64,000 nt of DNA. Origin: Antedon mediterranea. Its lineage: Eukaryota; Echinodermata; Crinoidea; Comatulida; Antedonidae. The notes under the pieces were generated by a model, which saw only the letters and a list, made by a program, of their open reading frames with translations, had not been told where the DNA came from and searched no databases. Location of the stretch: the NCBI RefSeq assembly GCF_964355755.1, contig NC_092675.1, forward strand, positions 27,384,412 through 27,448,411. The letters run 5' to 3'. Of this stretch, positions 5,487 through 35,252 are shown in pieces; position 1 is the stretch's first letter, and the number at the start of each line of letters is the position of its first letter. A program made the position numbers and the translations under genes.

Positions 5487-5579
5487 CAGCGTGGAAAAGA
5501 GATGAGGGTACCCAGGCTTAGGCCTAAGAGGTTGAGAAAAAAATCGCGAGCGGGAATGACATACGCCACCAATAGTTTG

Positions 5580-5775: not shown

Positions 5776-5789
5776 ACAATTCTTATCAT

Positions 5790-8133: not shown

Positions 8134-8395
8134 CCCAGGTAAAAATTCCAGTTGAAGACCAGTTGGGAAATTTCCCTGTTGTGAATTGAGACAATTACCA
8201 GTTGTGAATTTCCCAGTTGTGAATTTTCCAACTGGTCTGATAATCCCAGTTGTAAATTTTACCAGTTGTAAATTTCTCAACTGGTCTGATAATCCCAGTT
8301 GTGAATTTTCCAACTGGTCTGATCAATCCCAGTTGTAAATTTTCCCAGTTGTACATTTTTCCCAGTTGAGAATTTTCCCAACTGGTAAATTTCAG
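8134..8395. repeat. CCAGTTG minisatellite, copy 1
   Basis: Repeated CCCAGTTGTGAATTTTCC and CAACTGGTCTGATAATCC units alternate in both orientations. The left edge, CCCAGGTAAAAATTCCAGTT, is found in reverse complement at the outer edge of the second array (about 39885-39908). The two loci therefore belong to one dispersed repeat family. Confidence 0.75.
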
Positions 8396-10921: not shown

Positions 10922-11446
10922 TTCAACTTTCGGGAGCAGCATAACTACAGATGTTTCTCTGCGGCCCGACACGATCTTGACTAAGGTCAACGACGTCAAG
11001 TTTTTCTCAACTTTCGTAAGAGACGTAAGAAACGTATGAAACGCAAGAATCGTTGCAAAATTCGACTTCTTACGTCGACAGGAAACCAGCCTTTATTCCT
11101 TATTCGACATTCGTCAATGGAAGTTGGTTCCTTATTCGACGTTCGACATTCGCTAGGCTAGGCCAAAATTTCGAAAATGATAATTTCCCAGCGGTAAATA
11201 TGCCGTGCGCCACCAACCAATCTCCTGCTGTTACTTATTCCCTATTCGACATTCATTCGTGAAGTTGGTTCCTTAAGGCTGGTTTCCTGTCGACGTAAGA
11301 AGTCGAATTTTGCAACGATTCTTGCGTTTCATACGTTTCTTACGTCTCTTACGAAAGTTGAGAAAAACTTGACGTCGTTGACCTTAGTCAAGATCGTGTC
11401 GGGCCGCAGAGAAACATCTGTAGTTATGCTGCTCCCGAAAGTTGAA
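10922..11446. repeat. 171-bp inverted repeat around a 183-bp spacer
   Basis: Segment 10922-11092 is complementary, apparently without mismatch, to 11276-11446. Both arms end in the same terminal word (GGCTGGTTTCCTGTCGACGT or its complement). The spacer has repeated TTCGACATTCG and GAAGTTGGTTCCTTA words. The right arm is the left end of the element at 11276-12748. The left arm is therefore an extra, inverted copy of that transposon end. Confidence 0.85.
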
Positions 11447-12839: not shown

Positions 12840-13811
12840 TTACATTTTTTAGTTCCGATATTACGACAATACCAACGCCTCGGGCCGGGTTCACAATAGC
12901 ATAGATTGACGTAGTATGGTCCTGGAATTCCAGAAATGTGCCACTTGCCCCGACCCAGATCGGGCAAGTACGGATTTTAAAGCAATTTAAAATGCGTATT
13001 TTTAGCATTAATTTAGTAAACACCACTTTTATTAAAGTGGTCATATGACCACACACCGACGCCTCGCGTCGGGTACACAATAGTATAGATTGACGTAGTA
13101 TGGTCCTGGCATTCCAGAAATGTGCCACCTGCCCCGGCCCAGTGCGGGCAAGTACGTGTTTTAAAGCAATTTCAAATGCGTATTTTTAGCAATAATTTAC
13201 TAAGAATTAATAGCACCACTTTTAAAGTGGCCATATGACCACACCACGACGCCTCGGGCCGGGTACACAATAATATAGATTGACGTAGTATGGTCCTGGC
13301 ATTCCAGAAATGTGCCACTTGCCCCGGCCCAGTGCGGGCAAGTACGGGTTTTAAAGCAATTTAAAATGCGTATTTTTAGTGTTATTTTACTAAGTATTAA
13401 TAGCACCACTTTTAAAGTGGCAATATGACCACACCCCGACGTCTCGGGCCGGCCGCCGGGTACACAATAGTATAGATTGACGTAGTATGGTCCTGGCTTT
13501 CCAGAAATGTGCCACTTGCCCCGGCCCAGTGCGGGCAAGTACGGATTTTAAAGCAATTTAAAATGCGTATTTTTGGCATTAATTTAGTAAACACCACATT
13601 TAAAGTGGCCATATGACCACACCCCGACGCCTCGGGCCGGGAACACAATAGTATAGATTGACGTAGTATGGTCCTGGCATTCCAGAAATATGCCACTTGC
13701 CCCGGCCCAGTGCCGGCAAGTACCGTACGGATTTTAAAGCAATTTAAAATGCGTATTTTTAGCATTAATTTAGTAAACACCACTTTTAAAGTGGCCATAT
13801 GACCACACCCC
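12840..13811 (+). repeat. satellite array A (unit about 186 bp)
   Basis: About five tandem units. Landmarks in order are CGCCTCGGGCCGGG, ACACAATAGTATAGATTGACG, TGGTCCTGGCATTCCAGAAA, TGCCACTTGCCCCGGCCCAG, TTTTAAAGCAATTTAAAATG, the palindrome CCACTTTTAAAGTGG, and CATATGACCACACCCCGACG. Because the unit is about 62 codons long, frames stay open over several units and give spurious ORFs. The array is cut at 13811 by the palindromic element and resumes in register at 27614. Confidence 0.93.
13806..13811. repeat. 6-bp target site duplication, left copy (CACCCC)
   Basis: The uninterrupted satellite reads GACCACACCCCGACGCC. Left of the element the satellite ends ...CCACACCCC, and right of it the satellite restarts CACCCCGACGCC, so CACCCC is present twice. 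Confidence 0.88.
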
Positions 13812-13871
13812 AGTAGAGGTAGAGGGAATACAGACCCGAATGGAAGGTCATACCCCCAGGGCAGAAGTATT

Positions 13872-14075
13872 CCAGGCCCAAATGGAATGTCATACCCCCA
13901 GGGCATATTTCATATTTCTATTGTTTAATTTCCAGGTATTGTAATAATAATTAGTGAAAGGTCATTCTTTGTACCAGACCGGAAAGGAATGTCATATCCC
14001 CAGGGTATATATTATATTTTCTATTGTTTAATTTCCTGTTATTGTAATATTAATTAGCGAAAGGTCATTCTTTGT
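13872..14075. repeat. subterminal tandem repeat, 102-bp unit, left end
   Basis: Two imperfect units (13872-13973, 13974-14075) share ATGTCATA(C/T)CCCCAGGG, TTCTATTGTTTAATTTCC and AAAGGTCATTCTTTGT. A partial copy lies at 13830-13858. Iterated subterminal motifs close to both ends could be binding sites for a transposition or replication protein; this is an inference. Confidence 0.75.
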
Positions 14076-14409
14076 TAGAGAAGGGGGTTTGTTATTTTGG
14101 CGGGGTTTTCGTTTTGGCCTGGGTTATAATTGTAGTTGGTGATGAATTTGTATTTTAAATATATTAGTGAAGGTAGTTCTTTGTTTGAGGATTGCTATTG
14201 TTATTTTTAGGCGGTTTGACCATTGCATAGGTCGCCTTTGTTTAGTATATCCTAATTTCTTTTGTTCATTGTTCTTTTTGTTTGGTACAATAGTTTTGTA
14301 TTTGATATTTTAGAGCCGTTTCTTTTTAGACATTGTAAGAAGAGGGACTGCTTTTTGTGACCTTTCCAGTTGTTTCGTCTATTTTTACGTGGAGTTACAG
14401 TATTTCGCT

Positions 14410-14961
14410 ATGTCTGGAAGTATAGATTTTTCGTTAGGTAGCTGTGTAGATACAGTTATAATTATTAGCGATGATGAGGAGACTGTTGTTACAGGTAACG
14501 ATATCGGTGATCGGTACATGCGGACTAATGAGGGTGTACCCGCCGGTGTTGATGAAGGAGTTGAGAGGGGTAGCCGGGCTACAAGTTGTATATTTACGTA
14601 CGTAGATGAGGTGGAGAGAGAATTGTTATTGAAATTGGAATATTTAGCCAGAGAAGTGTTTGTTTCTCAAGTGTTAAACATGTGCTGGATGTTAAGTAAA
14701 GCGGCTTGTTATGGTTGCGAATTTGATAGGCCTGGTCAAAAATATCATGACTTCTGCTGTATGAAATCTCCAGAAGAACAGATTGATTATTTTTATCGGG
14801 AGGTTCTGGATAAAGAGTATGTTACAGACAATACCGTGTATAGTGAGTTGAATAAGTACGAGGAATATTCATTACCACGGTATAGACATTTTGTTTACTT
14901 TCTCGTAAATACCTTGACTAATTCAGAGAACCTGTATAAGTTATTGTGTGAGGATATCTAA
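14410..14961 (+). CDS. SIM-containing Cys/His protein, 183 aa (left arm copy)
   Basis: The product is not recognised. The frame is open from a non-ATG codon at 14389. The first ATG is at 14410, preceded by CGCT, and gives 183 residues. Near the N-terminus the run VIIISDDEE is a textbook SUMO-interaction motif: a beta-branched hydrophobic core followed by Ser and acidic residues. The middle has CYGCEFDRPGQKYHDFCC, a CxxC...HxxCC cluster that could bind zinc. Acidic and helical segments follow (EEQIDYFYREVL, NTLTNSENLYKLL). It lies about 600 bp inside the terminus and 200 bp upstream of the AlkB gene, in the same direction. The identical copy in the other arm means that selection on one copy cannot be separated from arm homogenisation. 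A role in binding the element's ends or in contacting SUMO-modified nuclear bodies is possible but unproven. Confidence 0.7.
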   Translation: MSGSIDFSLGSCVDTVIIISDDEETVVTGNDIGDRYMRTNEGVPAGVDEGVERGSRATSCIFTYVDEVERELLLKLEYLAREVFVSQVLNMCWMLSKAACYGCEFDRPGQKYHDFCCMKSPEEQIDYFYREVLDKEYVTDNTVYSELNKYEEYSLPRYRHFVYFLVNTLTNSENLYKLLCEDI

Positions 14962-15168
14962 AACGTGTTTCGCACGTGCCACGGAAAAACGATTGACCGG
15001 AAAACAAACAATTAACAATGCTTTTAATCCGCACGCGTTGTAGGGAGACAATTGACAGGAAAAACAATTAATATCGCTTTAGGCTAATTACTGTTAAAAG
15101 GCTACTTCCGTACTGAGCTGTTACATATATATCGGACCTGATTCAAACGCAGTTTTAAAGTACCAACG

Positions 15169-16867
15169 ATGACTACCTCCTCGAAGTTATTGGATCCTAG
15201 AAAATTTTTCAACGGTCAAACAAACGATTTGAGTAAAGCAGCGAAGCCGTCAACAAGTAAAAAATCATTTCACTCTGCCTCAGGAATTAGCGCCATGGAT
15301 TATGCCGAAATGACCGGTGGTGAACCAAAGATTCCAATAACTTCAACGAATCGGATTTTTCTGTCTGAAAAACGCCATGTAGTGGCCCAGCGCTGGGGTG
15401 AAGTTGTTTATGTATGCCTTAGAGAATGTTATCAAACGGAAGAAAATGGTGCCTTCAAACCTGGACCTCTAGGTATTAATTTACCCGTTCTGCTGTGGCA
15501 AAAACTTTTTACCAATATTGATTTAATTCTTCAAGCCCTAGCCAACTTGCAAAGAGACATTAACTTGGTGGAGGCAGTAAGAATCCCACTTTCGGACATA
15601 CTACATGTGGTAGTTAGTAGCTGGAAAGAAGAGCAGTTTGTATGTATTCGCCATTGTTACCAGGCCGAAGAAGGAGGCGAGTTTAAACCCGGCAAAAAAG
15701 GTATTAACCTTCCAAAGAGACAGTGGTACAAGTTAATTGAACAACACGGTGAAATTCAAAAGATGATTGAAGAGGTTGATAATGATAATGCGGTTACCGT
15801 CGATGGTGGTGGTGACGAAAACGATAACGGAGGACGTTTATTCAATTCAGAGCAACAATTGCTATCCCCTGATTGGTTATCTGTGCAAAAAATAACAGGG
15901 GAAAATTTAGATTGTGATTACCTTCAACTTCTTGATAAAGGAACAGCCGATACATTGTTTAAAAAATGTGAGGAAGAGATTGACTATTTTACCGGTGATC
16001 TTGCAAAGGTGAAAGTGTACGGAAAGTGGTTTAATATTCCTAGAAAACAGGTTAGTTCCATTATTATTTTATCCGTGGTTTTGTATTAATGACTTGTTAA
16101 TTACTTGTAGGCCTATATCGTTTCCTTTGTTTTTCTTTATTTACCGCTGGGTAGATGTGTAATTTACTCTTTTACTGTAAATGATTTTATTAGGGCGTGT
16201 TCATTTACATCTCACCAAATAAGATTCTTAAATTACTATGTAATGTATGGTTTTCCCCTCTGTATGTTTCGTTTGGCGATTCGGGCCTAACTTACAAATA
16301 TTCAGGCAATACAGTACCAGCTTTACCGTGGCCACCATTCCTGAAAGATCTCCGCGATCTTTTAAAAACGGTTACAGGACATTACTTCAATTTTGTCTTG
16401 GTCAATCGGTAAATATTCTTGTTTATTATTTTGTTTGTTTTAATTCTATTGTGCAAGTGTTATTTTACTTACATACATCCCCCCTCCCCCAATGGTTAAT
16501 TGGGTGTTTTTTTTTTAATCTCATGTTAAAATACTTTATTTTCTATTGTATTTTGTCGTTACTCTATAGATATGCTACTGGCAGTGATTACATTGGCGAA
16601 CACAAAGATGATGAAAAAGACATGAATCACTTTAGTCCAATCGCCTCTGTATCATTAGGGCAAACACGTATGTTTAGATTTCGACATGGTGATGCGCGAG
16701 GTAAGAGCCCCAAAAGAATAATTGAGCCAGTAACTGTTGATCTTAAACACGGTACATTATTAATGATGAATTATCCCACTAATGAGTACTGGTACCATTC
16801 ACTGCCTAAAAATCAATCCATCAAGCTACCACGAATAAATCTTACGTTTAGAGATATTAAAAGATGA
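15169..16867 (+). CDS. double PC4 domain-ALKBH2-like DNA demethylase fusion (left arm copy)
   Basis: Three exons are predicted: 15169-16050, 16266-16408 and 16570-16867, giving 440 aa. Residues 1-50 look disordered. PC4/p15 domain 1 covers about 61-125 (FKPGPLGINL). PC4 domain 2 covers about 135-203 (VCIRHCYQ, EFKPGKKGINLP..QW). A linker follows, and then an AlkB core from about 280 (VYGKWFNIPRKQ). The Fe(II) ligands are H353-x-D355 (GEHKDDE) and H418 (WYHSLP). The 2-oxoglutarate arginines are R430 and R436 (PRINLTFR). This pattern matches ALKBH2, which reverses 1-methyladenine and 3-methylcytosine in nuclear DNA. PC4 domains bind single-stranded DNA. Donors at 16051 (GTTAGT) and 16409 (GTAAAT) and the acceptor at 16569 (TATAG) are canonical. 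The expected acceptor before VSFGDSG reads CTCTGTAT instead of ending in AG. An in-frame AAG acceptor at 16221-16223 would add 14 residues. A TATA-like ACATATATAT lies about 40 bp before the ATG. Confidence 0.82.
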
Positions 16868-18540
16868 GAGAAATTTTACGCAAACATTAGGCCTAACAGT
16901 CTTCAATAGTGATTGCAGATCTCAAGAACATCAACTGTTCATGATCTGTTTTCATATAGTGTAGTAGTACAAGTTAGATTACTTTTGTGATGATATTTCT
17001 ACAAATGGTTGTATTATTGTATTGAAGTTAATTCACTTAGATATAGGGCTAATTCCATTGATCGTTAATAATAATGTGATTGTTTGTCATAGTGTGGATA
17101 ATGATTAACTTTACGAAACAAATAGTTGTATTATTGTATTGAAATTCACTTAGATTCCATTGATCGTTAATATTCATGTGATTGTGTCCCATTGTGTGGA
17201 TAAAAATTAAATAATCTCTTAAAAGTAAATTGTATTGTATTTCTAATTGTTATAAATACATGTAACAGTTTCTTATGTTTGCACGTTTTTCTTTAAAGCG
17301 TTTTAACCGTTTAGTTAGTCATTTCTACTAATTTTAACAGAAAAACAAAAAAACTAGACATTCAACCGGACCCCAAACATTGAAATTTGTTTACAAGCAG
17401 GTTATTTCCATTAGCTATTCTAAGGCCTACTTTTTTTTTCTACATGTTTATTTTTCGACTATTTTTAAAAACTTTTTTTATGAATCTTCTGCTGTTTCGT
17501 TAGCAATTTTACAGGCCTGTGTCTTCGCTCTGTAGGCTTAACCTTATAACGGTTCTTTGTAAATGTTCTCTTATTGATGGTTACCTATAGCTCTCTCACA
17601 TCCCTTAATCTAGCACCATTTTATGAAAGATTCCTCAGTAAGGGGTTTATTACTGACGCTAGGTATCATCGACAGGGAATATTAGACAAAACATGACGTC
17701 ACTATTTTTAAAAGGTTTTCTCATTCAAGAACAGCTGACGTCAATGAAGAATACGTTACAACACGATAACTACCGGACAGCAGCAAAAAACATCAACCAA
17801 TCACAAATCTGAGCTACTAGTTAAATAATAAATAAACGAAACAAAGACAAAAGAAAAGGAAATACACTAAACAAATCATTTTCGTCTCGAAGTTATATTA
17901 ACGTAAATTTTTCCTTCACAAAATCACAGGAGACGCGTTTAACGTTTCCAATCACATTATTCAACTCATCAGGTGTAATATCTTTACACAAATCCTTTAT
18001 ATCTTTACTTGTTTTCTTACCAGCTCATATCAAACATGAATATTACTCTAAAGGATTGATGTACGATAAACCCCCCCCCCCCTTTTTTTTCTTTTTTTTT
18101 AAAGTCTGCATAGCGGCACGAGAAAACAATTGATAATGGAGATAAAAAGTTTGTCTTACATTGTTATACAGTAACCTGTGTTTTTCTTTGTTTACACCAT
18201 CTCATTGTTTATAATTATGTATGTTAATGTCGATAGTGTTTCTCTAGTACAGTTTATTACTTGTTTATACTCGTAAAGTTGGCAGGCCTCCATGTTGTTG
18301 GTATATTTTGTAAAAATTGTATTTATGTTTACTTTTTAAAAATCGTTTTATTTGCATTTTATCTCCTCCTGGTTAAAATGAGTGTGATGTTGCTTAAAAA
18401 GTTAACAAGTATAACCACTAAAACGGTTCAATACCTGTAGGAAATCATCAACATTGTAACATGCTGTAAACAATACAAATTAGTTTCACAAATTATTTAA
18501 ACAATAACACTAACAAATTATTAGAATTTAAGAAAATAAA
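16868..18540. other. arm interior without a recognised gene (left arm)
   Basis: AT-rich sequence with no coding frame I can support. It contains two diverged copies of TTGTATTATTGTATTGAA..TTCACTTAGAT...CCATTGATCGTTAAT (about 17008-17075 and 17126-17175). It also has a poly-C/poly-T tract at 18068-18100 whose length differs from the mirror copy. The mirror region is 22882-24558. Confidence 0.5.
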
Positions 18541-18840
18541 GGTGTACAGATTTTATTTCGATAAAAAAAGTGTACAAAAATAACTTTACAAAAAATGTAC
18601 AGATTAAATTAACAACAACAAAAAATCACACATTAAACTAATTCTTATAAAGGTGTACAGTGTACATTGGCCACAGACATTCTTAAAACGAGGTGTACAG
18701 CTTTTATTTTAAAAAAAAGTATACAAAAATAATTTTACAAAAAGTGTATAGAATAAATTTACAAAAAAAAGTTCACACATTAAACTAATGCTTATAAAAG
18801 TCTACATGTCGATGTGTACATGTAACGTGGCATTACCATT
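18541..18840. repeat. 150-bp tandem duplication with GTGTACA motifs (left arm)
   Basis: Two units (18541-18690 and 18691-18840) each begin GGTGTACAG and carry GTACAAAAATAA, TTTACAAAAA and CACACATTAAACTAAT. The repeated GTGTACA/TGTACAC words are palindromic-like and could be protein-binding sites. The mirror copy is at 22582-22881. Confidence 0.75.
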
Positions 18841-19490
18841 AAGAAACAAATACAAACCAAACACTTAACAGCTAAAACAGCATAGCGATCGTTTTCGTAC
18901 GTAAAACAATACCTCCAGCAGGTATATCAACTTTAGTATTTTAAGTATAGGGCCTACACGCGACAAACACACAAACACCCTCTTGAATTGTAGGTACAGG
19001 CCTTTTGCCGTTCGTAATTCAAACTGTTCGGAAAATTGAAGTTAATATTCTGAGATTAGGCCTATAGTCTATGATTGCATTCTGCCTTCCCTCTCAGGAG
19101 CTTAGACTTGTCAACGGTCTAAAAGAGCTGTAATGCAGGATGCGAAACATAACAGTTTATTAATAAACAGTATATTATAACGATAAAGAAACGAATGTAC
19201 GATACACCAATATAACAGTACAATAACTGATTAACTGAAGACTTGAAGTCTACTGTATTCCTACAATCATTCAAGTAGACATTGTTTGTTGAGTGTATGA
19301 TACTTTCTCCAAAGAGAATTCGAACGATGTGTTTTTCGGACGTGTTTCTACGGTTATCAGAACGGGTCGATAATAATTTTAAAAAATAAAAACAAAAACA
19401 AAACAAAAAACGAACAACCTACTAACTTCCAAAAAATCAATACCCAAATAAGCTGAACCTAACCCACTAATTAATAATCTGTTCCATACA

Positions 19491-19697
19491 TCAAAATCGG
19501 CCGAAAATGATCTGAACATTGAAAAGTGGACACGGTCGTCTGTTCTTCTTTTCTGTTTCCACGGCTTGTGACAGCCTCGTTGGTGATAAAGTCATGCGGT
19601 TTACACACTTATGATGACCATATCGCATAACATGTTCAGGGAACTTATTTTTCAACTCTCTGATACAATGTTTAAATACAAGTGGACTGGAAACCAT
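19491..19697 (-). CDS. small hypothetical ORF, 68 aa (left arm copy)
   Basis: The frame has an ATG start in a fair context (TAAATGG) and reads MVSSPLVFKHCIRELKNKF... with a basic C-terminal half (EKKNRRPCP). I recognise no family. It points away from the centre, toward the AlkB gene. Its identity with the mirror copy reflects arm identity and is not evidence of selection. It may be an exon or a chance frame. Confidence 0.25.
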   Translation of the reverse strand: MVSSPLVFKHCIRELKNKFPEHVMRYGHHKCVNRMTLSPTRLSQAVETEKKNRRPCPLFNVQIIFGRF

Positions 19698-19714
19698 TTA
19701 GGAATAGGGTTTTC

Positions 19715-20383
19715 TAATAATAAAAGTTGTGTAAAACTTTAGTTATGGTCAAGGAGAATTGGTAAAGACTTGGAGTAAATGGTCAAAGCCGGTGGCAAAT
19801 GGTCAAGACCGAGAGAAAAATTAATGTACACCATTTTATAAGTTTATAGTCAATTATTGTGTTAACATTCATTTATGAATAAATCTGTATACGTATTCAA
19901 TAATAAAAAGAAGAATAACTTTCTTATGCTTAATATCATGAATAACATATCTTTAGTGGTTAAGGTAATATATTATTTCTCTGTATACTGCCGTCACACA
20001 TATAGATAAAGAGAGACTGTCCATTAATAAAAGTTGTGTAAAACTTTAGTTTTGGTCAAGGGGATTGGTCAAGACTTGAAGTAAATGGTCGAGACTTGGA
20101 GTAAATGGTCGAGACCGGGGGAAAATGGTCAAGACAGGGAGAAAATGATCAAGACAGGGAGAAAATGATCAAGACAGGGAGAAAAATTAATGTATACAAT
20201 TTTATAAGTTTATAGCCACTTATTGTGTTAAATTTCATTTATGATTAAACCTGTATACGTATTCAATAATAAAAAATTAATTTTCCTTCACTTAATATCA
20301 TGAATAACATATCTTTAGTGGTTAAGGTATTATATTATTTCTCTGTATACTGACCTCACAAATATAGATAAAGAGAGACTGTA
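19715..20383. repeat. tandem duplication (about 306 and 359 bp) with 20-bp sub-repeats (left arm)
   Basis: Unit 1 (about 19715-20020) and unit 2 (about 20025-20383) both run from ATAAAAGTTGTGTAAAACTT to ATATAGATAAAGAGAGACTG. Unit 2 is longer because a 20-bp motif (TGGTCAAGACAGGGAGAAAA) is iterated about six times at 20075-20185. The mirror copy is at 21039-21707. Confidence 0.85.
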
Positions 20384-20679
20384 ACTAAAGGTTTATTGAT
20401 TATTAGGGTTACAGTGAGAGTTCTATGCAAACATTAAAAGGCCAATTAACGAGCCACCCAACTTAATTAAGTACCGGTACCTAACAAATGCGCTCAAACT
20501 CTATGCAGGTTACAACTCTACAAAAGAGGACATTGTATTTTTAAACTAGGGTTAAACATGAAAAAGGTCAATTACTTGAACTCTGAACATTGGAAAAAGG
20601 GTTGTGTCAATTGACACTTGAACTTTACCTCTAGACAAGGAGGAATGGACAGTTACAATTTACCATTAAACTCTGGTCA

Positions 20680-20742
20680 ACCGTTTTATTGGGGGGCTCT
20701 CAAATTTCGACGAAGTCGAAAATTGAAACTCCCATGCTTTTG
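20680..20742. other. 63-bp central spacer of the palindrome
   Basis: The only unpaired part of the 13.8-kb element. It contains its own small stem, TTTCGAC-GAA-GTCGAAA (about 20704-20722), at its middle. If the whole arm pair folded, this would be the loop. Such a non-palindromic turn-around is what foldback priming of a displaced strand would leave. Confidence 0.85.
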
Positions 20743-21038
20743 TGACCAGAGTTTAATGGTAAATTGTAACTGTCCATTCCTCCTTGTCTAGAGGTAAAGT
20801 TCAAGTGTCAATTGACACAACCCTTTTTCCAATGTTCAGAGTTCAAGTAATTGACCTTTTTCATGTTTAACCCTAGTTTAAAAATACAATGTCCTCTTTT
20901 GTAGAGTTGTAACCTGCATAGAGTTTGAGCGCATTTGTTAGGTACCGGTACTTAATTAAGTTGGGTGGCTCGTTAATTGGCCTTTTAATGTTTGCATAGA
21001 ACTCTCACTGTAACCCTAATAATCAATAAACCTTTAGT

Positions 21039-21707
21039 TACAGTCTCTCTTTATCTATATTTGTGAGGTCAGTATACAGAGAAATAATATAATACCTTAA
21101 CCACTAAAGATATGTTATTCATGATATTAAGTGAAGGAAAATTAATTTTTTATTATTGAATACGTATACAGGTTTAATCATAAATGAAATTTAACACAAT
21201 AAGTGGCTATAAACTTATAAAATTGTATACATTAATTTTTCTCCCTGTCTTGATCATTTTCTCCCTGTCTTGATCATTTTCTCCCTGTCTTGACCATTTT
21301 CCCCCGGTCTCGACCATTTACTCCAAGTCTCGACCATTTACTTCAAGTCTTGACCAATCCCCTTGACCAAAACTAAAGTTTTACACAACTTTTATTAATG
21401 GACAGTCTCTCTTTATCTATATGTGTGACGGCAGTATACAGAGAAATAATATATTACCTTAACCACTAAAGATATGTTATTCATGATATTAAGCATAAGA
21501 AAGTTATTCTTCTTTTTATTATTGAATACGTATACAGATTTATTCATAAATGAATGTTAACACAATAATTGACTATAAACTTATAAAATGGTGTACATTA
21601 ATTTTTCTCTCGGTCTTGACCATTTGCCACCGGCTTTGACCATTTACTCCAAGTCTTTACCAATTCTCCTTGACCATAACTAAAGTTTTACACAACTTTT
21701 ATTATTA
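21039..21707. repeat. tandem duplication with 20-bp sub-repeats (right arm mirror)
   Basis: Mirror image of 19715-20383. The iterated motif here reads TTTTCTCCCTGTCTTGATCA. Confidence 0.85.
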
Positions 21708-21724
21708 GAAAACCCTATTCCTAA

Positions 21725-21931
21725 ATGGTTTCCAGTCCACTTGTATTTAAACATTGTATCAGAGAGTTGAAAAATAAGTTCCCTGAACATGTTATGCGAT
21801 ATGGTCATCATAAGTGTGTAAACCGCATGACTTTATCACCAACGAGGCTGTCACAAGCCGTGGAAACAGAAAAGAAGAACAGACGACCGTGTCCACTTTT
21901 CAATGTTCAGATCATTTTCGGCCGATTTTGA
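21725..21931 (+). CDS. small hypothetical ORF, 68 aa (right arm copy)
   Basis: Identical in translation to the frame at 19491-19697. The same reservations apply: no recognised family, and its conservation is fully explained by arm identity. Confidence 0.25.
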   Translation: MVSSPLVFKHCIRELKNKFPEHVMRYGHHKCVNRMTLSPTRLSQAVETEKKNRRPCPLFNVQIIFGRF

Positions 21932-22581
21932 TGTATGGAACAGATTATTAATTAGTGGGTTAGGTTCAGCTTATTTGGGTATTGATTTTTTGGAAGTTAG
22001 TAGGTTGTTCGTTTTTTGTTTTGTTTTTGTTTTTATTTTTTAAAATTATTATCGACCCGTTCTGATAACCGTAGAAACACGTCCGAAAAACACATCGTTC
22101 GAATTCTCTTTGGAGAAAGTATCATACACTCAACAAACAATGTCTACTTGAATGATTGTAGGAATACAGTAGACTTCAAGTCTTCAGTTAATCAGTTATT
22201 GTACTGTTATATTGGTGTATCGTACATTCGTTTCTTTATCGTTATAATATACTGTTTATTAATAAACTGTTATGTTTCGCATCCTGCATTACAGCTCTTT
22301 TAGACCGTTGACAAGTCTAAGCTCCTGAGAGGGAAGGCAGAATGCAATCATAGACTATAGGCCTAATCTCAGAATATTAACTTCAATTTTCCGAACAGTT
22401 TGAATTACGAACGGCAAAAGGCCTGTACCTACAATTCAAGAGGGTGTTTGTGTGTTTGTCGCGTGTAGGCCCTATACTTAAAATACTAAAGTTGATATAC
22501 CTGCTGGAGGTATTGTTTTACGTACGAAAACGATCGCTATGCTGTTTTAGCTGTTAAGTGTTTGGTTTGTATTTGTTTCTT

Positions 22582-22881
22582 AATGGTAATGCCACGTTAC
22601 ATGTACACATCGACATGTAGACTTTTATAAGCATTAGTTTAATGTGTGAACTTTTTTTTGTAAATTTATTCTATACACTTTTTGTAAAATTATTTTTGTA
22701 TACTTTTTTTTAAAATAAAAGCTGTACACCTCGTTTTAAGAATGTCTGTGGCCAATGTACACTGTACACCTTTATAAGAATTAGTTTAATGTGTGATTTT
22801 TTGTTGTTGTTAATTTATTCTGTACATTTTTTGTAAAGTTATTTTTGTACACTTTTTTTATCGAAATAAAATCTGTACACC
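22582..22881. repeat. 150-bp tandem duplication (right arm mirror)
   Basis: Mirror of 18541-18840, with the CTGTACACCT and TTTTTGTAAA words in complement. Confidence 0.75.
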
Positions 22882-24558
22882 TTTATTTTCTTAAATTCTA
22901 ATAATTTGTTAGTGTTATTGTTTAAATAATTTGTGAAACTAATTTGTATTGTTTACAGCATGTTACAATGTTGATGATTTCCTACAGGTATTGAACCGTT
23001 TTAGTGGTTATACTTGTTAACTTTTTAAGCAACATCACACTCATTTTAACCAGGAGGAGATAAAATGCAAATAAAACGATTTTTAAAAAGTAAACATAAA
23101 TACAATTTTTACAAAATATACCAACAACATGGAGGCCTGCCAACTTTACGAGTATAAACAAGTAATAAACTGTACTAGAGAAACACTATCGACATTAACA
23201 TACATAATTATAAACAATGAGATGGTGTAAACAAAGAAAAACACAGGTTACTGTATAACAATGTAAGACAAACTTTTTATCTCCATTATCAATTGTTTTC
23301 TTGTGCCGCTATGCAGACTTTAAAAAAAAAGAAAAAAAGGGGGGGGGGGGTTTATCGTACATCAATCCTTTAGAGTAATATTCATGTTTGATATGAGCTG
23401 GTAAGAAAACAAGTAAAGATATAAAGGATTTGTGTAAAGATATTACACCTGATGAGTTGAATAATGTGATTGGAAACGTTAAACGCGTCTCCTGTGATTT
23501 TGTGAAGGAAAAATTTACGTTAATATAACTTCGAGACGAAAATGATTTGTTTAGTGTATTTCCTTTTCTTTTGTCTTTGTTTCGTTTATTTATTATTTAA
23601 CTAGTAGCTCAGATTTGTGATTGGTTGATGTTTTTTGCTGCTGTCCGGTAGTTATCGTGTTGTAACGTATTTTTCATTGACGTCAGCTGTTCTTGAATGA
23701 GAAAACCTTTTAAAAATAGTGACGTCATGTTTTGTCTAATATTCCCTGTCGATGATACCTAGCGTCAGTAATAAACCCCTTACTGAGGAATCTTTCATAA
23801 AATGGTGCTAGATTAAGGGATGTGAGAGAGCTATAGGTAACCATCAATAAGAGAACATTTACAAAGAACCGTTATAAGGTTAAGCCTACAGAGCGAAGAC
23901 ACAGGCCTGTAAAATTGCTAACGAAACAGCAGAAGATTCATAAAAAAAGTTTTTAAAAATAGTCGAAAAATAAACATGTAGAAAAAAAAAGTAGGCCTTA
24001 GAATAGCTAATGGAAATAACCTGCTTGTAAACAAATTTCAATGTTTGGGGTCCGGTTGAATGTCTAGTTTTTTTGTTTTTCTGTTAAAATTAGTAGAAAT
24101 GACTAACTAAACGGTTAAAACGCTTTAAAGAAAAACGTGCAAACATAAGAAACTGTTACATGTATTTATAACAATTAGAAATACAATACAATTTACTTTT
24201 AAGAGATTATTTAATTTTTATCCACACAATGGGACACAATCACATGAATATTAACGATCAATGGAATCTAAGTGAATTTCAATACAATAATACAACTATT
24301 TGTTTCGTAAAGTTAATCATTATCCACACTATGACAAACAATCACATTATTATTAACGATCAATGGAATTAGCCCTATATCTAAGTGAATTAACTTCAAT
24401 ACAATAATACAACCATTTGTAGAAATATCATCACAAAAGTAATCTAACTTGTACTACTACACTATATGAAAACAGATCATGAACAGTTGATGTTCTTGAG
24501 ATCTGCAATCACTATTGAATTGAAGACTGTTAGGCCTAATGTTTGCGTAAAATTTCTC

Positions 24559-26257
24559 TCATCTTTTAATATCTCTAAACGTAAGATTTATTCTTGGTAG
24601 CTTGATGGATTGATTTTTAGGCAGTGAATGGTACCAGTACTCATTAGTGGGATAATTCATCATTAATAATGTACCGTGTTTAAGATCAACAGTTACTGGC
24701 TCAATTATTCTTTTGGGGCTCTTACCTCGCGCATCACCATGTCGAAATCTAAACATACGTGTTTGCCCTAATGATACAGAGGCGATTGGACTAAAGTGAT
24801 TCATGTCTTTTTCATCATCTTTGTGTTCGCCAATGTAATCACTGCCAGTAGCATATCTATAGAGTAACGACAAAATACAATAGAAAATAAAGTATTTTAA
24901 CATGAGATTAAAAAAAAAACACCCAATTAACCATTGGGGGAGGGGGGATGTATGTAAGTAAAATAACACTTGCACAATAGAATTAAAACAAACAAAATAA
25001 TAAACAAGAATATTTACCGATTGACCAAGACAAAATTGAAGTAATTCCCTGTAACCGTTTTTAAAAGATCGCGGAGATCTTTCAGGAATGGTGGCCACGG
25101 TAAAGCTGGTACTGTATTGCCTGAATATTTGTAAGTTAGGCCCGAATCGCCAAACGAAACATACAGAGGGGAAAACCATACATTACATAGTAATTTAAGA
25201 ATCTTATTTGGTGAGATGTAAATGAACACGCCCTAATAAAATCATTTACAGTAAAAGAGTAAATTACACATCTACCCAGCGGTAAATAAAGAAAAACAAA
25301 GGAAACGATATAGGCCTACAAGTAATTAACAAGTCATTAATACAAAACCACGGATAAAATAATAATGGAACTAACCTGTTTTCTAGGAATATTAAACCAC
25401 TTTCCGTACACTTTCACCTTTGCAAGATCACCGGTAAAATAGTCAATCTCTTCCTCACATTTTTTAAACAATGTATCGGCTGTTCCTTTATCAAGAAGTT
25501 GAAGGTAATCACAATCTAAATTTTCCCCTGTTATTTTTTGCACAGATAACCAATCAGGGGATAGCAATTGTTGCTCTGAATTGAATAAACGTCCTCCGTT
25601 ATCGTTTTCGTCACCACCACCATCGACGGTAACCGCATTATCATTATCAACCTCTTCAATCATCTTTTGAATTTCACCGTGTTGTTCAATTAACTTGTAC
25701 CACTGTCTCTTTGGAAGGTTTATACCTTTTTTGCCGGGTTTAAACTCGCCTCCTTCTTCGGCCTGGTAACAATGGCGAATACATACAAACTGCTCTTCTT
25801 TCCAGCTACTAACTACCACATGTAGTATGTCCGAAAGTGGGATTCTTACTGCCTCCACCAAGTTAATGTCTCTTTGCAAGTTGGCTAGGGCTTGAAGAAT
25901 TAAATCAATATTGGTAAAAAGTTTTTGCCACAGCAGAACGGGTAAATTAATACCTAGAGGTCCAGGTTTGAAGGCACCATTTTCTTCCGTTTGATAACAT
26001 TCTCTAAGGCATACATAAACAACTTCACCCCAGCGCTGGGCCACTACATGGCGTTTTTCAGACAGAAAAATCCGATTCGTTGAAGTTATTGGAATCTTTG
26101 GTTCACCACCGGTCATTTCGGCATAATCCATGGCGCTAATTCCTGAGGCAGAGTGAAATGATTTTTTACTTGTTGACGGCTTCGCTGCTTTACTCAAATC
26201 GTTTGTTTGACCGTTGAAAAATTTTCTAGGATCCAATAACTTCGAGGAGGTAGTCAT
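24559..26257 (-). CDS. double PC4 domain-ALKBH2-like DNA demethylase fusion (right arm copy)
   Basis: Exons mirror the left copy: 26257-25376, 25160-25018 and 24856-24559. The domains and the catalytic H-x-D, H and R residues are the same. The only coding difference I see is in exon 2. The left copy has GGACAT (Gly-His, residue 333) and this copy has GGGAAT (Gly-Asn). Two neighbouring bases changed, one silent and one replacing an amino acid outside the metal site. The exon 2 acceptor is the same non-canonical TGTAT, so that change pre-dates the duplication of the arms. Confidence 0.82.
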
Positions 26258-26463
26258 CGTTGGTACTTTAAAACTGCGTTTGAATCAGGTCCGATATATA
26301 TGTAACAGCTCAGTACGGAAGTAGCCTTTTAACAGTAATTAGCCTAAAGCGATATTAATTGTTTTTCCTGTCAATTGTCTCCCTACAACGCGTGCGGATT
26401 AAAGCATTGTTAATTGTTTGTTTTCCGGTCAATCGTTTTTCCGTGGCACGTGCGAAACACGTT

Positions 26464-27015
26464 TTAGATATCCTCACACAATAACTTATACAGGTTCTCT
26501 GAATTAGTCAAGGTATTTACGAGAAAGTAAACAAAATGTCTATACCGTGGTAATGAATATTCCTCGTACTTATTCAACTCACTATACACGGTATTGTCTG
26601 TAACATACTCTTTATCCAGAACCTCCCGATAAAAATAATCAATCTGTTCTTCTGGAGATTTCATACAGCAGAAGTCATGATATTTTTGACCAGGCCTATC
26701 AAATTCGCAACCATAACAAGCCGCTTTACTTAACATCCAGCACATGTTTAACACTTGAGAAACAAACACTTCTCTGGCTAAATATTCCAATTTCAATAAC
26801 AATTCTCTCTCCACCTCATCTACGTACGTAAATATACAACTTGTAGCCCGGCTACCCCTCTCAACTCCTTCATCAACACCGGCGGGTACACCCTCATTAG
26901 TCCGCATGTACCGATCACCGATATCGTTACCTGTAACAACAGTCTCCTCATCATCGCTAATAATTATAACTGTATCTACACAGCTACCTAACGAAAAATC
27001 TATACTTCCAGACAT
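26464..27015 (-). CDS. SIM-containing Cys/His protein, 183 aa (right arm copy)
   Basis: Identical in translation to the 14410-14961 copy. It has the N-terminal VIIISDDEE SUMO-interaction-like motif and a central CxxC...HxxCC cluster. It lies 600 bp inside the right terminus and reads toward the centre, upstream of the AlkB gene. Function is unknown. Confidence 0.7.
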   Translation of the reverse strand: MSGSIDFSLGSCVDTVIIISDDEETVVTGNDIGDRYMRTNEGVPAGVDEGVERGSRATSCIFTYVDEVERELLLKLEYLAREVFVSQVLNMCWMLSKAACYGCEFDRPGQKYHDFCCMKSPEEQIDYFYREVLDKEYVTDNTVYSELNKYEEYSLPRYRHFVYFLVNTLTNSENLYKLLCEDI

Positions 27016-27349
27016 AGCGAAATACTGTAACTCCACGTAAAAATAGACGAAACAACTGGAAAGGTCACAAAAAGCAGTCCCTCTTCTTACAATGTCTAAA
27101 AAGAAACGGCTCTAAAATATCAAATACAAAACTATTGTACCAAACAAAAAGAACAATGAACAAAAGAAATTAGGATATACTAAACAAAGGCGACCTATGC
27201 AATGGTCAAACCGCCTAAAAATAACAATAGCAATCCTCAAACAAAGAACTACCTTCACTAATATATTTAAAATACAAATTCATCACCAACTACAATTATA
27301 ACCCAGGCCAAAACGAAAACCCCGCCAAAATAACAAACCCCCTTCTCTA

Positions 27350-27553
27350 ACAAAGAATGACCTTTCGCTAATTAATATTACAATAACAGGAAATTAAACA
27401 ATAGAAAATATAATATATACCCTGGGGATATGACATTCCTTTCCGGTCTGGTACAAAGAATGACCTTTCACTAATTATTATTACAATACCTGGAAATTAA
27501 ACAATAGAAATATGAAATATGCCCTGGGGGTATGACATTCCATTTGGGCCTGG
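27350..27553. repeat. subterminal tandem repeat, 102-bp unit, right end
   Basis: Mirror of 13872-14075. CCCTGGGG(A/G)TATGACATTCC is repeated. Confidence 0.75.
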
Positions 27554-27613
27554 AATACTTCTGCCCTGGGGGTATGACCTTCCATTCGGGTCTGTATTCC
27601 CTCTACCTCTACT

Positions 27614-27619
27614 CACCCC
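27614..27619. repeat. 6-bp target site duplication, right copy (CACCCC)
   Basis: Direct partner of 13806-13811. The satellite continues in register (CACCCCGACGCCTCGGG). Confidence 0.88.
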
Positions 27620-30600
27620 GACGCCTCGGGCCGGGTACACAATAGTATAGATTGACGTAGTATGGTCCTGACTTTCCAGAAATGTGCCACTTGCCCCGGC
27701 CCAGTGCGGGAAAGTACGTGTTTAAAAGCAATTTCAAATGCGTATTTTTAGCATTAATTTACTAAGAATTAATAGCACCACTTTTAAAGTGGCCATATGA
27801 CCACACCCCAACGCCTCGGGCCGGGAACACAATAGTATAGATTGACGTAGAATGGTCCTGGCATTCCAGAAATGTGCCACTTGCCCCGGCCCAGTGCGGG
27901 CAAGTACTGATTTTAAAGCAATTTCAAATGCGTATTTTTAGAATTAATTTACTAAGAATTAATAGCACCACATTTAAAGTGGCCATATGACCACACCCCG
28001 ACGCCTCGGGCCGGGAACACAATAGTATAGATTGACGTAGTATGGTCCTGGCATTCCAGAAATATACCACTTGCCCCGGCCCAGTGCCGGCAAGTACGGA
28101 TTTTAAAGCAATTTAAATGCGTATTTTTAGCATTAATTTAGTAAACACCACTTTTAAAGTGGCCATATGACCACACCCCGACGCCTCGGGCCGGGTACAC
28201 AATAGTATAGATTGACGTAGTATGGTCCTGACTTTCCAGAAATGTGCCACTTGCCCCGGCCCAGTGCGGGAATTACGTGTTTAAAAGCAATTTCAAATGC
28301 GTATTTTTAGCATTAATTTACTAAGAATTAATAGCACCACTTTTAAAGTGGCCATATGACCACACCCCAACGCCTCGGGCCGGGAACACAATAGTATAGA
28401 TTGACGTAGAATGGTCCTGGCATTCCAGAAATGTGCCACTTGCCCCGGCCCAGTGCGGGCAAGTACGGATTTTAAAGCAATTTAAAATGCGTATTTTTAG
28501 CATTAATTTAGTAAACACCACTTTTAAAGTGGCCATATGACCACACCCCGACGCGTCGGGCCGGGTACACAATAGTATAGATTGACTTAGTATGGTCCTG
28601 GCTTTCCAGAAATGTGCCACTTGCCCCGGCCCAGTGCGGGCAACTACGTGTTTAAAAGCAATTTCAAATGCGTTTTTTAGCATTAATTTACTAAGAATTA
28701 ATAGCACCACATTTAAAGTGGCCATATGACCACACCCCGACGCCTCGGGCCGGGAACACAATAGTATAGATTGACGTAGTATGGTCCTGGCATTCCAGAA
28801 ATATACCACTTGCCCCGGCCCAGTGCCGGCAAGTACGGATTTTAAAGCAATTTAAAATGCGTATTTTTAGCATTAATTTAGTAAACACCACTTTTAAAGT
28901 GGCCATATGACCACACCCCGACGCCTCGGGCCGGGTACACAATAGTATAGATTGACGTAGTATGGTCCTGACTTTCCAGAAATGTGCCACTTGCCCCGGC
29001 CCAGTGCGGGAATTACGTGTTTAAAAGCAATTTCAAATGCGTATTTTTAGCATTGATTTACTAAGAATTAATAGCACCACTTTTAAAGTGGCCACATGAC
29101 CACACCCCAACGCCTCGGGCCGGGAACACAATAGTATAGATTGACGTAGAATGGTCCGGACATTCCAGAAATGTGCCACTTGCCCCGGCCCAGTGCGGGC
29201 AAGTACGTGTTTTAAAGCAATTTAAAATGCGTGTTTTTAGTGTTATTTTACTAAGTATTAATAGCACCACTTTTAAAGTGGCAATATGACCACACCCCGA
29301 CGCCTCGGGCCGGATTCACAATAGTATAGATTGACGTAGTATGGTCCTGACTTTCCAGAAATGTGCCACTTGCCCCGGCCCAGTGCGGGCAAGTACGTGT
29401 TTAAAAGCAATTTCAAATGCGTATTTTTAGTGTTATTTTACTAAGTATTAATAGCACCACTTTTAAAGTGGCCATATGACCACACCCCGACGCCTCGGGC
29501 CGGGTACACAATAATATAGGTTGACGTAGTATGGTCCTGACTTTCCAGAAATGTGCCACTTGCCCCGGCCCAGTGCGGGAATTACGTGTTTAAAAGCAAT
29601 TTCAAATGCGTATTTTTAGCATTAATTTACTAAGAATTAATAGCACCACTTTTAAAGTGGCCATATGACCACACCCCAACGCCTCGGGCCGGATTCACAA
29701 TAGTATAGATTGACGTAGTATGGTCCTGACTTTCCAGAAATGTGCCACTTGCCCCGGCCCAGTGCGGGAATTACGTGTTTAAAAGCAATTTCAAATGCGT
29801 ATTTTTAGCATTAATTTACTAAGAATTAATAGCACCACTTTTAAAGTGGCCATATGACCACACCCCAACGCCTCGGGCCGGGAACACAATAGTATAGATT
29901 GACGTAGAATGGTCCTGGCATTCCAGAAATGTGCCACTTGCCCCGGCCCAGTGCGGGCAAGTACGGATTTTAAAGCAATTTAAAATGCGTATTTTTAGCA
30001 TTAATTTAGTAAACACCACTTTTAAAGTGGCCATATGACCACACCCCGACGCGTCGGGCCGGGTACACAATAGTATAGATTGACTTAGTATGGTCCTGGC
30101 TTTCCAGAAATGTGCCACTTGCCCCGGCCCAGTGCGGGCAACTACGTGTTTAAAAGCAATTTCAAATGCGTTTTTTAGCATTAATTTACTAAGAATTAAT
30201 AGCACCACATTTAAAGTGGCCATATGACCACACCCCGACGCCTCGGGCCGGGAACACAATAGTATAGATTGACGTAGTATGGTCCTGGCATTCCAGAAAT
30301 ATACCACTTGCCCCGGCCCAGTGCCGGCAAGTACGGATTTTAAAGCAATTTAAAATGCGTATTTTTAGCATTAATTTAGTAAACACCACTTTTAAAGTGG
30401 CCATATGACCACACCCCGACGCCTCGGGCCGGGTACACAATAGTATAGATTGACGTAGTATGGTCCTGACTTTCCAGAAATGTGCCACTTGCCCCGGCCC
30501 AGTGCGGGAATTACGTGTTTAAAAGCAATTTCAAATGCGTATTTTTAGCATTAATTTACTAAGAATTAATAGCACCACTTTTAAAGTGGCCATATGACCA

Positions 30601-32360
30601 CACCCCAACGCCTCGGGCCGGGAACACAATAGTATAGATTGACGTAGAATGGTCGGACATTCCAGAAATGTGCCACTTGCCCCGGCCCAGTGCGGGCAAG
30701 TACGTGTTTTAAAGCAATTTAAAATGCGTGTTTTTAGTGTTATTTTACTAAGTATTAATAGCACCACTTTTAAAGTGGCAATATGACCACACCCCGACGC
30801 CTCGGGCCGGGTACATAATAGTATGGATTGACGTAGAAAGGTCCAGACTTTCTAGAAATGTGCCACTTGCCCCGGCCCAGTGCGGGCCAGTACGTGTTTT
30901 AAAGCAATTTAAAATGCGTATTTTTAGTGTTATTTTACTAAGTATTAATAGCACCACTTTTAAAGTGGCCATATGACCACACCCCGACGCCTCGGGCCGG
31001 GTACACAATAGTATAGATTGACGCAGTATGGTCCTGGCTTTCCAGAAATGTGCCACTTGCCCCGGCCCAGTGCGGGCAAGTACGGATTTTAAAGCAATTT
31101 AAAATGCGTATTTTTAGCATTAATTTAGTAAACACCACTTTTAAAGTGGCCATATGACCACACCCCGACGCCTCGGGTTGGGTTCACAATAGTATAGATT
31201 GATGTAGAATGGTCCTGGCATTCCATAAACGTGCCACTTGCCCCGGCCCAGTGCGGGCAAGTACATGTTTGAAAGCAATTTCAACTGCGTATTTTTAGCA
31301 TTAATTTACTAAGAATTAATAGCACCACATTTAAAGTGGCCATATGACCACACCCCGACGCCTCGGGCCGGGAACACAATAGTATAGATTAACGTAGTAT
31401 GGTCCTGGCATTCCAGAAATATGCCACTTGCCCCGGCCCAGTGCGGGCAAGTACGGATTTTAAAGCAATTTAAAATGCGTATTTTTAGTGTTATTTTACT
31501 AAGTATTAATAGCACCACTTTTAAAGTGGCAATATGACCACACCCCCGACGCCTCGGGCCGGGTTCACAATAGTATGGATTGACGTAGAAAGGTCCAGAC
31601 TTTCTAGAAATGTGCCACTTGCTCCGGCCCAGTGCGGGCCAGTACGTGTTTTAAAGCAATTTAAAATGCGTATTTTTAGTGTTATTTTACTAAGTATTAA
31701 TAGCACCACTTTTAAAGTGGCCATATGACCACACCCCGACGCCTCGGGCCGGGTACACAATAGTATAGATTGACGCAGTATGGTCCTGGCTTTCCAGAAA
31801 TGTGCCACTTGCCCCGGCCCAGTGCGGGCAAGTACGGATTTTAAAGCAATTTAAAATGCGTATTTTTAGCATTAATTTAGTAAACACCACTTTTAAAGTG
31901 GCCATATGACCACACCCCGACGCCTTGGGTCGGGTTCACAATAGTATAGATTGTTGATGTAGAATGGTCCTGGCATTCCATAAACGTGCCACTTGCCCCG
32001 GCCCAGTGCGGGCAAGTACGTGTTTAAAAGCAATTTAAAATGCGTATATTTAGTGTTTTTTTTACTAAGTATTAACAGCACTACTTTTAAAGTGGCAATA
32101 TGACCACACCCCGACGCCTCGCGCCGGGTTCACAATAGTATGGATTGACGTACGTAGAATGGTCCTGAAATTCCAGAAATGTGCCACTTGCCCCGGACCA
32201 GTGCGGGCAAGTACGTGTTTTAAAGCTATTTAAAATGCGTATTTTTAGCATTAATTTAGTAAACGCCACTTTTAAAGTGGCCATATGACCACACCCCGAC
32301 GCCTCGGGCCGGGTACACAATAGTATAGATTGACGTAGTATGGTCCTGACTTTCCAGAAA
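27614..32360 (+). repeat. satellite array B, about 25 units, with higher-order repeats
   Basis: Same unit and orientation as array A. At least three unit variants alternate, ending AGTAAACACC, AAGAATTAATAGCACC or AAGTATTAATAGCACC. A block of about 1.1 kb (28200-29313) recurs almost unchanged 1.5 kb later (29698-30810). A second pair (about 30730-31180 and 31480-31930) is offset by 752 bp, or four units. This multi-unit duplication is typical of unequal exchange. Overlapping minus-strand frames of 69-162 codons through the array are by-products of a unit length divisible by three. Confidence 0.93.
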
Positions 32361-32372
32361 CACTTTAAAGTG
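32361..32372. other. inversion junction of the satellite at a 12-bp palindrome
   Basis: The forward array stops inside a unit (CTTTCCAGAAA). After CACTTTAAAGTG, a perfect palindrome, the sequence continues as the reverse complement of the unit (CTTTAAAACACGTACTTGCC). The palindrome resembles the unit's own CCACTTTTAAAGTGG. Confidence 0.85.
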
Positions 32373-35232: not shown

Positions 35233-35252
35233 GAATACCGGTTTCACTGGAT

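What the first reader, a model, noticed from the sequence alone, without database searches (positions are those of the whole stretch)
13812..27613. A 13.8-kb palindromic mobile element with 6.87-kb arms and a 6-bp target duplication
Seen: two near-identical inverted arms, a 63-bp spacer, AG...CT ends and CACCCC on both sides in a satellite whose uninterrupted sequence is known from dozens of neighbouring units. Known: Polinton/Maverick elements make 6-bp duplications and have AG-type ends, but ordinary inverted repeats of hundreds of bases. Inference: the element was already a palindrome when it integrated, because the duplication sits at the outermost ends of both arms. A whole element that is all terminal repeat, with no mobility genes but intact-looking cargo, is not a form I know to have been described.
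Basis: partly seen in the sequence, partly recalled or inferred. Interest (0 to 1): 0.93.

Follow-up and report, generated by a model that had tools for sequence, protein, structure and literature searches.

The report
Palindromic Polinton family in a feather star
In a feather-star genome a virus-like jumping element has thrown off a gene-poor, mirror-image form that moves around as a mirror image, apparently using enzymes of its complete relatives, and keeps its two halves nearly identical.

Summary
A search with the terminal 300 bp gave 13 complete elements, all with exact 6-bp target duplications. Nine are ordinary Polintons of 15.4-16.3 kb; the one read in detail encodes PolB, chromodomain integrase and protease. 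Four, on four chromosomes, are 13.7-14.6-kb palindromes with the same 63-bp imperfect-hairpin centre; in the window copy the outer ~2 kb is the Polinton p190/PC4 end. So this is a small non-autonomous Polinton family that inserts as a palindrome, presumably mobilised by its complete relatives.

Arms of one palindrome differ by 0.2-0.5%, different palindromes by 1.5-8%. Of 542 variable columns, 509 agree in both arms of every element. One palindrome carries a Polinton's outer ~1.2 kb in both arms. Arms are therefore homogenised, most simply during replication through a fold-back hairpin before integration; in-chromosome conversion is not excluded. A fifth palindrome has PolB-containing arms around the same hairpin.

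"Intact cargo" fails: the PC4-AlkB gene lacks its first-intron AG acceptor in both arms. All-TIR elements are known (Galileo); I found none described for Polintons. Searches with arm interior and centre did not complete.

The parts
13806..13811 (+). left copy of the 6-bp target duplication CACCCC, in a 190-bp satellite
13812..20679 (+). left arm, 6.87 kb; first ~2.0 kb homologous to the p190/PC4 end of Polintons in the same genome
13812..14240 (+). Polinton-type terminal repeat; matches both ends of Polinton C1:33.53 (429 bp at 97.2% at its PolB end)
14389..14961 (+). p190 ORF (183 aa from its MSGSIDF start), also the first gene of Polinton C9:2.2; open in both arms; no significant family match (DFF40 E = 0.006, below cut-off)
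15169..16050 (+). exon 1 of the PC4-PC4-AlkB gene (PF02229, E 1.8e-22; the open frame runs on to 16089); full-length relatives found only in Antedon mediterranea, more distant hits match the ALKBH2 part alone
16247..16867 (+). open frame over exons 2-3, ALKBH2-like (PF13532, E 1.4e-19); upstream intron acceptor is not AG, in both arms
20680..20742 (.). 63-bp asymmetric spacer, an imperfect hairpin; shared by all four palindromes and by the PolB-armed palindrome at C9:16.69 Mb
20743..27613 (-). right arm, mirror copy of the left arm with the same genes (p190 26464-27036, PC4 frame 25337-26257, AlkB frame 24559-25179, all minus strand)
27614..27619 (+). right copy of the target duplication CACCCC

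Best explanation
A palindromic, non-autonomous derivative of a Polinton. Shown: the outer ~2 kb of both window arms is the p190/PC4 end of Polintons of the same genome. Shown: four palindromes with the same centre sit at four sites, each with its own exact 6-bp duplication. Shown: the arms of each palindrome evolve together, and one palindrome has taken a Polinton end into both arms. Inferred: PolB and integrase of complete Polintons replicate and insert it in trans. Inferred: it arose by fold-back (template switch) at a hairpin, as snap-back defective genomes of other linear DNA viruses do. Inferred: each displaced strand can fold into a 6.9-kb hairpin with the 63-bp spacer as loop, and copying or mismatch repair in that hairpin makes the arms identical up to the terminal base while sparing the spacer; the double-stranded palindrome then integrates.
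For: Terminal search: 13 complete elements, 13 of 13 with exact 6-bp TSDs and AGTAG ends, 4 with end similarity of at least 1.75 kb and 9 with short terminal repeats. Polinton genes in C9:2.2. Same centre in 4 of 4. Arm-arm substitution 0.22-0.51% against 1.5-8.2% between palindromes. 509 of 542 variable columns concordant in both arms of every element, and indels shared by both arms, e.g. 354 bp lacking only in the window element among the 8 palindrome arms. Tree of arm interiors: all four arm pairs at 99-100% support. C4 palindrome: 6 of 245, 0 of 750 and 3 of 250 differences from Polinton C5:19.57 at arm 1-250, 251-1000 and 1001-1250, with no difference between its own two arms there, then a switch to the palindrome lineage. 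Both C4 ends share their first 44 bases with ends of Polintons C5:19.57 and C8:18.65. A palindrome with PolB arms around the same hairpin. Palindromes 13.7-14.6 kb, just under Polintons at 15.4-16.3 kb.
Against: Nothing shows trans-mobilisation or a hairpin intermediate directly. Arms are not perfectly equal: C9:17.5 differs by ~850 bp and C3:31.22 by ~330 bp in length, and the two C3 ends carry different terminal variants. The three Polintons whose middle was read (one whole, two over 2 kb) lack the hairpin at the corresponding place, so where it came from is open. Much of the arm interior (2.0-6.9 kb) has no known source; the genome searches for it did not complete. In arm 268-1338 the palindromes are not one clade (two changes, forced by starred branches), explained here by the C4 exchange. 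Zero spacer changes between C6 and C3 is not exceptional: 10 of 97 arm windows of 63 columns also show none.
Confidence: 0.7

Rival explanations
1. The palindromes inserted as palindromes, but their arms were homogenised afterwards in the chromosome by arm-to-arm gene conversion, as in long palindromes of mammalian Y chromosomes (recalled). This rivals the homogenisation step only.
For: Long inverted arms with a short spared spacer are what in-situ conversion leaves; concordant sites alone cannot tell before from after insertion.
Against: Homogeneity reaches the first base at both ends in 3 of 4 palindromes, and each of their end types also occurs at a Polinton or single end. The C4 arms share a Polinton's terminus and ~1.2 kb on both sides, which would need conversion that stops at the element edge twice. 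Unequal indels of ~330 and ~850 bp persist.
Confidence: 0.25
2. Palindromes arise repeatedly, each newly made by fold-back at the same hairpin in a diverged single-armed parent, and do not propagate as palindromes.
For: Explains identical arms in each element with diverged elements. Single-arm copies exist (C6:26.86, arm 28 to the hairpin tip; C9:9.4, arm 55-6529). A PolB-armed palindrome uses the same hairpin.
Against: Both halves of the asymmetric spacer plus the start of the other arm are shared, so a parent would need the whole hairpin. Of the two single-arm copies one ends at the hairpin tip and one before it; no second terminus was listed for either, and the sequence beyond matches none of the fetched Polinton pieces compared. 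Three Polintons whose middle was read lack the hairpin there.
Confidence: 0.2
3. Assembly artefact or post-integration inverted duplication of one chromosomal copy.
For: Palindromes are a known assembly hazard; read data were not available.
Against: Distinct flanks with an exact TSD at the outermost ends of both arms, four times on four chromosomes; arms differ by substitutions; the empty site matches the satellite.
Confidence: 0.02

Closest known systems
Polinton/Maverick elements (self-synthesising, PolB + retroviral-type integrase)
   Same: 6-bp TSD, AGT-type ends (vertebrate end motifs given as (AG)3 and (AGT)2, PMC8097293, passages read), homologous termini and first ~2 kb
   Different: No PolB, integrase or capsid gene found; the whole element is inverted repeat instead of ~0.23-0.43-kb terminal repeats
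Galileo '2-TIR' / Foldback elements of Drosophila (P superfamily)
   Same: Non-autonomous copies composed almost entirely of TIR; exchange of sequence among copies, mainly in the TIRs (PMC3573991, abstract and passages)
   Different: 1.7-2.2 kb on average; placed in the P superfamily; here 13.7-14.6 kb with genes in the arms and Polinton ends
AAV snap-back genomes
   Same: Self-complementary defective genomes that keep one moiety and an end of the parent and replicate with helper functions (PMC8235507, abstract and passages)
   Different: Parvovirus, found in virus populations; not a family of chromosomal insertions
Adenovirus incomplete-particle genomes (Daniell 1976: seen only in a reference list; content recalled)
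   Same: Protein-primed linear DNA; defective genomes with long inverted duplication of the left end (recalled)
   Different: Seen in culture; not heritable insertions
ODIRA, origin-dependent inverted-repeat amplification (PMC4689423, start of abstract seen in listing; mechanism recalled)
   Same: A replication error at short inverted repeats makes inverted copies
   Different: Chromosomal amplification, not a transposable element

Membership tests
Polinton/Maverick | 6-bp target site duplication | tested here: met
   13 of 13 complete elements, 4 of 4 palindromes
Polinton/Maverick | termini homologous to autonomous copies, AGT-type ends | tested here: met
   end motifs in PMC8097293
Polinton/Maverick | encodes protein-primed PolB and RVE integrase | tested here: not met
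   inside the window palindrome the frames of >=80 aa are p190, PC4, AlkB and a 95-aa frame, each twice; the Polinton C9:2.2 has both enzymes. Filed only as a non-autonomous derivative, not as an autonomous Polinton
Polinton/Maverick | terminal inverted repeats of hundreds of bases around a unique middle | tested here: not met
   arms meet at a 63-bp spacer
Galileo/Foldback all-TIR elements | element consists almost only of inverted repeat | tested here: met
Galileo/Foldback all-TIR elements | P-superfamily termini and TSD (7-8 bp, recalled) | tested here: not met
   6-bp TSD and Polinton termini
Snap-back / defective interfering genomes | keeps the helper's replication ends and one half of its genome, inverted | tested here: inconclusive
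   ends and outer ~2 kb come from the Polinton; the interior source is not settled
Snap-back / defective interfering genomes | replicates only with helper and competes with it | not testable with these tools
   needs extrachromosomal DNA or expression data

The most novel reading that the evidence does not exclude
The 63-bp imperfect hairpin is the element's second telomere. The replicating form is a 6.9-kb linear DNA with a Polinton terminus at one end and a covalently closed hairpin at the other, and the chromosomal palindrome is its dimer form. Arms are interchangeable around this hairpin, since p190-armed and PolB-armed palindromes share it, and the single arm that ends at the hairpin tip (C6:26.86) is an integrated monomer. 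This would be a Polinton-dependent satellite replicon with hairpin telomeres.
Probability: 0.15. Interest if true: 0.92.

Novelty: new variant of a known kind. Interest (0 to 1): 0.73.

Why it matters
Polintons are inferred to copy themselves by protein priming, but animal Polinton replication intermediates have, to my knowledge (recalled, not searched), not been seen. A heritable family of palindromic Polintons whose arms evolve in concert is a chromosomal record that looks like fold-back replication. It makes the replication mode testable from sequence and by simple snap-back assays. It would also be a natural satellite of an animal Polinton, with the standing possibility of 6.9-kb hairpin RNA acting on its helper, and a route by which a host-derived repair gene (ALKBH2-like) is spread.

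Tried and rejected
The pattern CACCCCAG in the genome is near chance (1,720 and 1,741 against 1,580 and 1,529 control matches) and only located the window. Phage records for the PC4 exon, and IMG/VR contigs and the large protein set for p190, gave no relatives. A DFF40 hit to p190 (E 0.006) is below cut-off and did not recur in the Polinton copy at E <= 0.01. The idea that the hairpin sits in the middle of ordinary Polintons failed in the three whose middle was read (C9:2.2 whole; 2 kb each of C5:19.57 and C1:33.53). Spacer orientation (forward in C6 and C9, reverse in C4 and C3) says nothing about flip-flop, because a palindrome has no other orientation. Spacer conservation between C6 and C3 is not significant alone. 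Synonymous/nonsynonymous ratios for the PC4-AlkB gene are not used: my exon-2/3 boundary was off by one base, so exon 3 was read out of frame. The p190 ratios there (0.24-0.71 in seven pairs) rest on few changes and are not used either.
Full report
THE OBJECT. Window 13812-27613 is a 13.8-kb inverted repeat with 6.87-kb arms (99.8%, 7 substitutions and 3 small indels), a 63-bp spacer, AGTAGAGG...CCTCTACT ends and CACCCC on each side. With one CACCCC removed, the joined flanks read through other copies of the 190-bp satellite (up to 97% over 239 bp). The spacer is itself an imperfect hairpin. Each arm carries, reading inward, p190, a PC4-PC4-AlkB gene and ~3.8 kb with only a 95-aa frame.

ORGANISM. 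The protein search for the PC4 exon returned 10 proteins, the first six named Antedon mediterranea. The contig behind P0005 has the length of contig C4 of the window's genome, 36,192,472, so I infer the genome is that feather star. The contigs behind P0001-P0004 and P0006 are 5-8 kb longer than C9, C2, C11, C3 and C1 and fit only approximately.

THE FAMILY. A search of the whole genome with the terminal 300 bp gave 49 matches (the tool calls such counts lower bounds). Opposed ends pair into 13 complete elements of 13.7-16.3 kb. All 13 have exact 6-bp duplications next to AGTAG. In four (C6:27.40 = window, C4:35.60, C3:31.22, C9:17.5) the two ends are alike for at least 1.75 kb, as far as the fetched ends reach. 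In nine (C1:33.53, C5:19.57, C8:18.65, C11:13.84, C1:6.67, C5:18.30, C2:11.4, C3:25.6, C9:2.2) only for about 0.23-0.43 kb, and in 9 of 9 one end alone carries the arm's next kilobase. The remaining matches are single ends, fragments or repeats; I fetched eight further loci (L045-L052). Palindromes measure 13.70-14.57 kb and Polintons 15.39-16.31 kb.

THE POLINTONS. C9:2.2 was read in two halves, not joined: p190, PC4, integrase with chromodomain (PF00665 7e-13, PF00385 2e-8), an adenain-like protease (PF00770 2e-4), an ATPase-like frame cut by the piece boundary (Adeno_IVa2 0.0016, below cut-off), PolB (PF03175 8e-45, one frame of 1,273 aa) and a weak Bcl-2 match (2e-4, below cut-off). The 440-aa frame lies where a capsid protein is expected (recalled); neither Pfam nor solved structures matched it. 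The arm's first ~2.0 kb matches the p190/PC4 end of this Polinton at 92-94%. Farther in, only weak matches near the Bcl-2 stretch appear (arm 3974-4247, 71-75%).

INSERTED AS PALINDROMES. All four palindromes share the same asymmetric 63-bp centre, and their TSDs are CACCCC, AGCGCT, CACAGC and AGAGAG. Four separate insertions of an already palindromic DNA explain this simply.

ARMS EVOLVE TOGETHER. Arms of one element differ by 0.22-0.51% (substitutions, centre included); different palindromes differ by 1.5-8.2%. Of 542 variable columns with letters in all eight arms (arm position up to 6860), 509 are concordant in both arms of every element and 33 are not (C6 7, C9 12, C4 3, C3 11, five of the last being the terminal variant). 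Indels go together too: 354 bp lacking in both window arms and in none of the other arms; five gaps of 38-152 bp in both C3 arms, four of them also in the single-arm copy at C6:26.86. A tree of arm interiors pairs the two arms in 4 of 4 elements at 99-100% support. Exceptions: C9 arms differ by ~850 bp and C3 arms by ~330 bp in length.

EXCHANGE WITH POLINTONS. Both arms of the C4 palindrome, identical to each other over the first 2.7 kb, show 6 of 245, 0 of 750 and 3 of 250 differences from Polinton C5:19.57 at arm 1-250, 251-1000 and 1001-1250. At 1251-1500 they differ from the six Polintons compared by 12-18 of 250, and from ~1500 on they are closest to palindromes C9 and C6. Their first 44 bases equal one end of Polintons C5:19.57 and C8:18.65. 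Judged by eye on the first 15 bases, the two ends carry the same terminal variant in 3 of 4 palindromes and in 4 of 9 Polintons. A chromosomal conversion tract would have to stop at the element edge on both sides, so I favour exchange and homogenisation before integration. This is inference.

THE HAIRPIN AND A SECOND KIND OF PALINDROME. At C9:16.69 Mb (L045, L058) the same hairpin is flanked by inverted copies of the Polinton's PolB side: 98.6% over 4.6 kb, weaker for a further ~1 kb. PolB is interrupted in both arms. One outer end carries p190/PC4 pieces and a terminus; the other, as fetched, has none. The three Polintons whose middle I read lack the hairpin at the corresponding place, so its origin is open. 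A single-arm copy at C6:26.86 stops at the hairpin tip and has no matching duplication in the 1.2 kb fetched beyond. A second (C9:9.4) stops at arm position 6529.

CARGO. The window copy has no AG acceptor at intron 1 in either arm. C9:17.5 has a 7-base deletion in exon 1 in both arms. C3:31.22 lacks 379 bases of the exons and has a stop in p190 in both arms. If arms were homogenised before insertion, copies with broken cargo still moved, so the cargo is not needed in cis. The AlkB part resembles ALKBH2-like proteins of crinoids without PC4 (P0006, P0007), pointing to a captured host gene (inference).

MECHANISM AND LIMITS. A linear palindrome with Polinton ends can be replicated by the helper PolB; each displaced strand can fold into a 6.9-kb hairpin, and copying or repair there equalises the arms and spares the loop. 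This mirrors AAV snap-back genomes (PMC8235507, abstract and passages) and, from memory, left-end inverted adenovirus defective genomes. I could not search the genome with the arm interior or centre (repeated calls unanswered), so the number of palindromes is a lower bound and repeated origin is not excluded.

NOVELTY. Of ten literature searches over the open-licence library, seven bear on this (the others, 19, 22 and 66, sought the organism and adenovirus particles). None listed a palindromic Polinton. Listings were partial: one search showed 15 of 25 papers, 10 of 90, 20 of 84. Subscription journals and preprints were not searched. All-TIR elements are known outside Polintons (PMC3573991).

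Noticed in passing
L045 1-9901 and L058 4050-9500 (C9:16.69 Mb): A further palindrome whose arms carry the PolB side of a Polinton around the same hairpin centre; PolB is interrupted in both arms.
   Followed up: partly
L051 373-8740 (C6:26.86 Mb): Single arm that stops at the tip of the centre hairpin; no matching target duplication in the 1.2 kb fetched beyond.
   Followed up: partly
L036 152-903 and L039 (reverse complement) 124-875: The host flanks of Polinton C9:2.2 are themselves inverted copies of each other over ~750 bp (94.9%), 0.6 kb outside the element.
   Followed up: no
L044 539-943: Polinton C9:2.2 carries a 134-aa frame with a weak Bcl-2 family match (E 1.7e-4, below cut-off).
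   Followed up: no
window 12875-13811, 27614-33877, 37522-39652: 190-bp satellite arrays; orientation flips at about 32360.
   Followed up: no
window 10922-11093 and 11275-11446: Perfect 172-bp inverted repeat 181 bp apart, perhaps a small hairpin element.
   Followed up: no
window 34243-35247 (-): 334-aa frame with CCHC-like knuckles (read by eye), perhaps a retroelement ORF, between satellite arrays.
   Followed up: no
window 39650-39873: 20-bp minisatellite CCAGTTGACCAGTTGAAAAA; similar CCAGTTG-type units at 8198-8392.
   Followed up: no
P0002 (contig of 40.9 Mb, probably C2): A PC4-AlkB protein standing for 12 member sequences, 77% identical to the window's PC4 frame; its locus could not be searched.
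   Followed up: no
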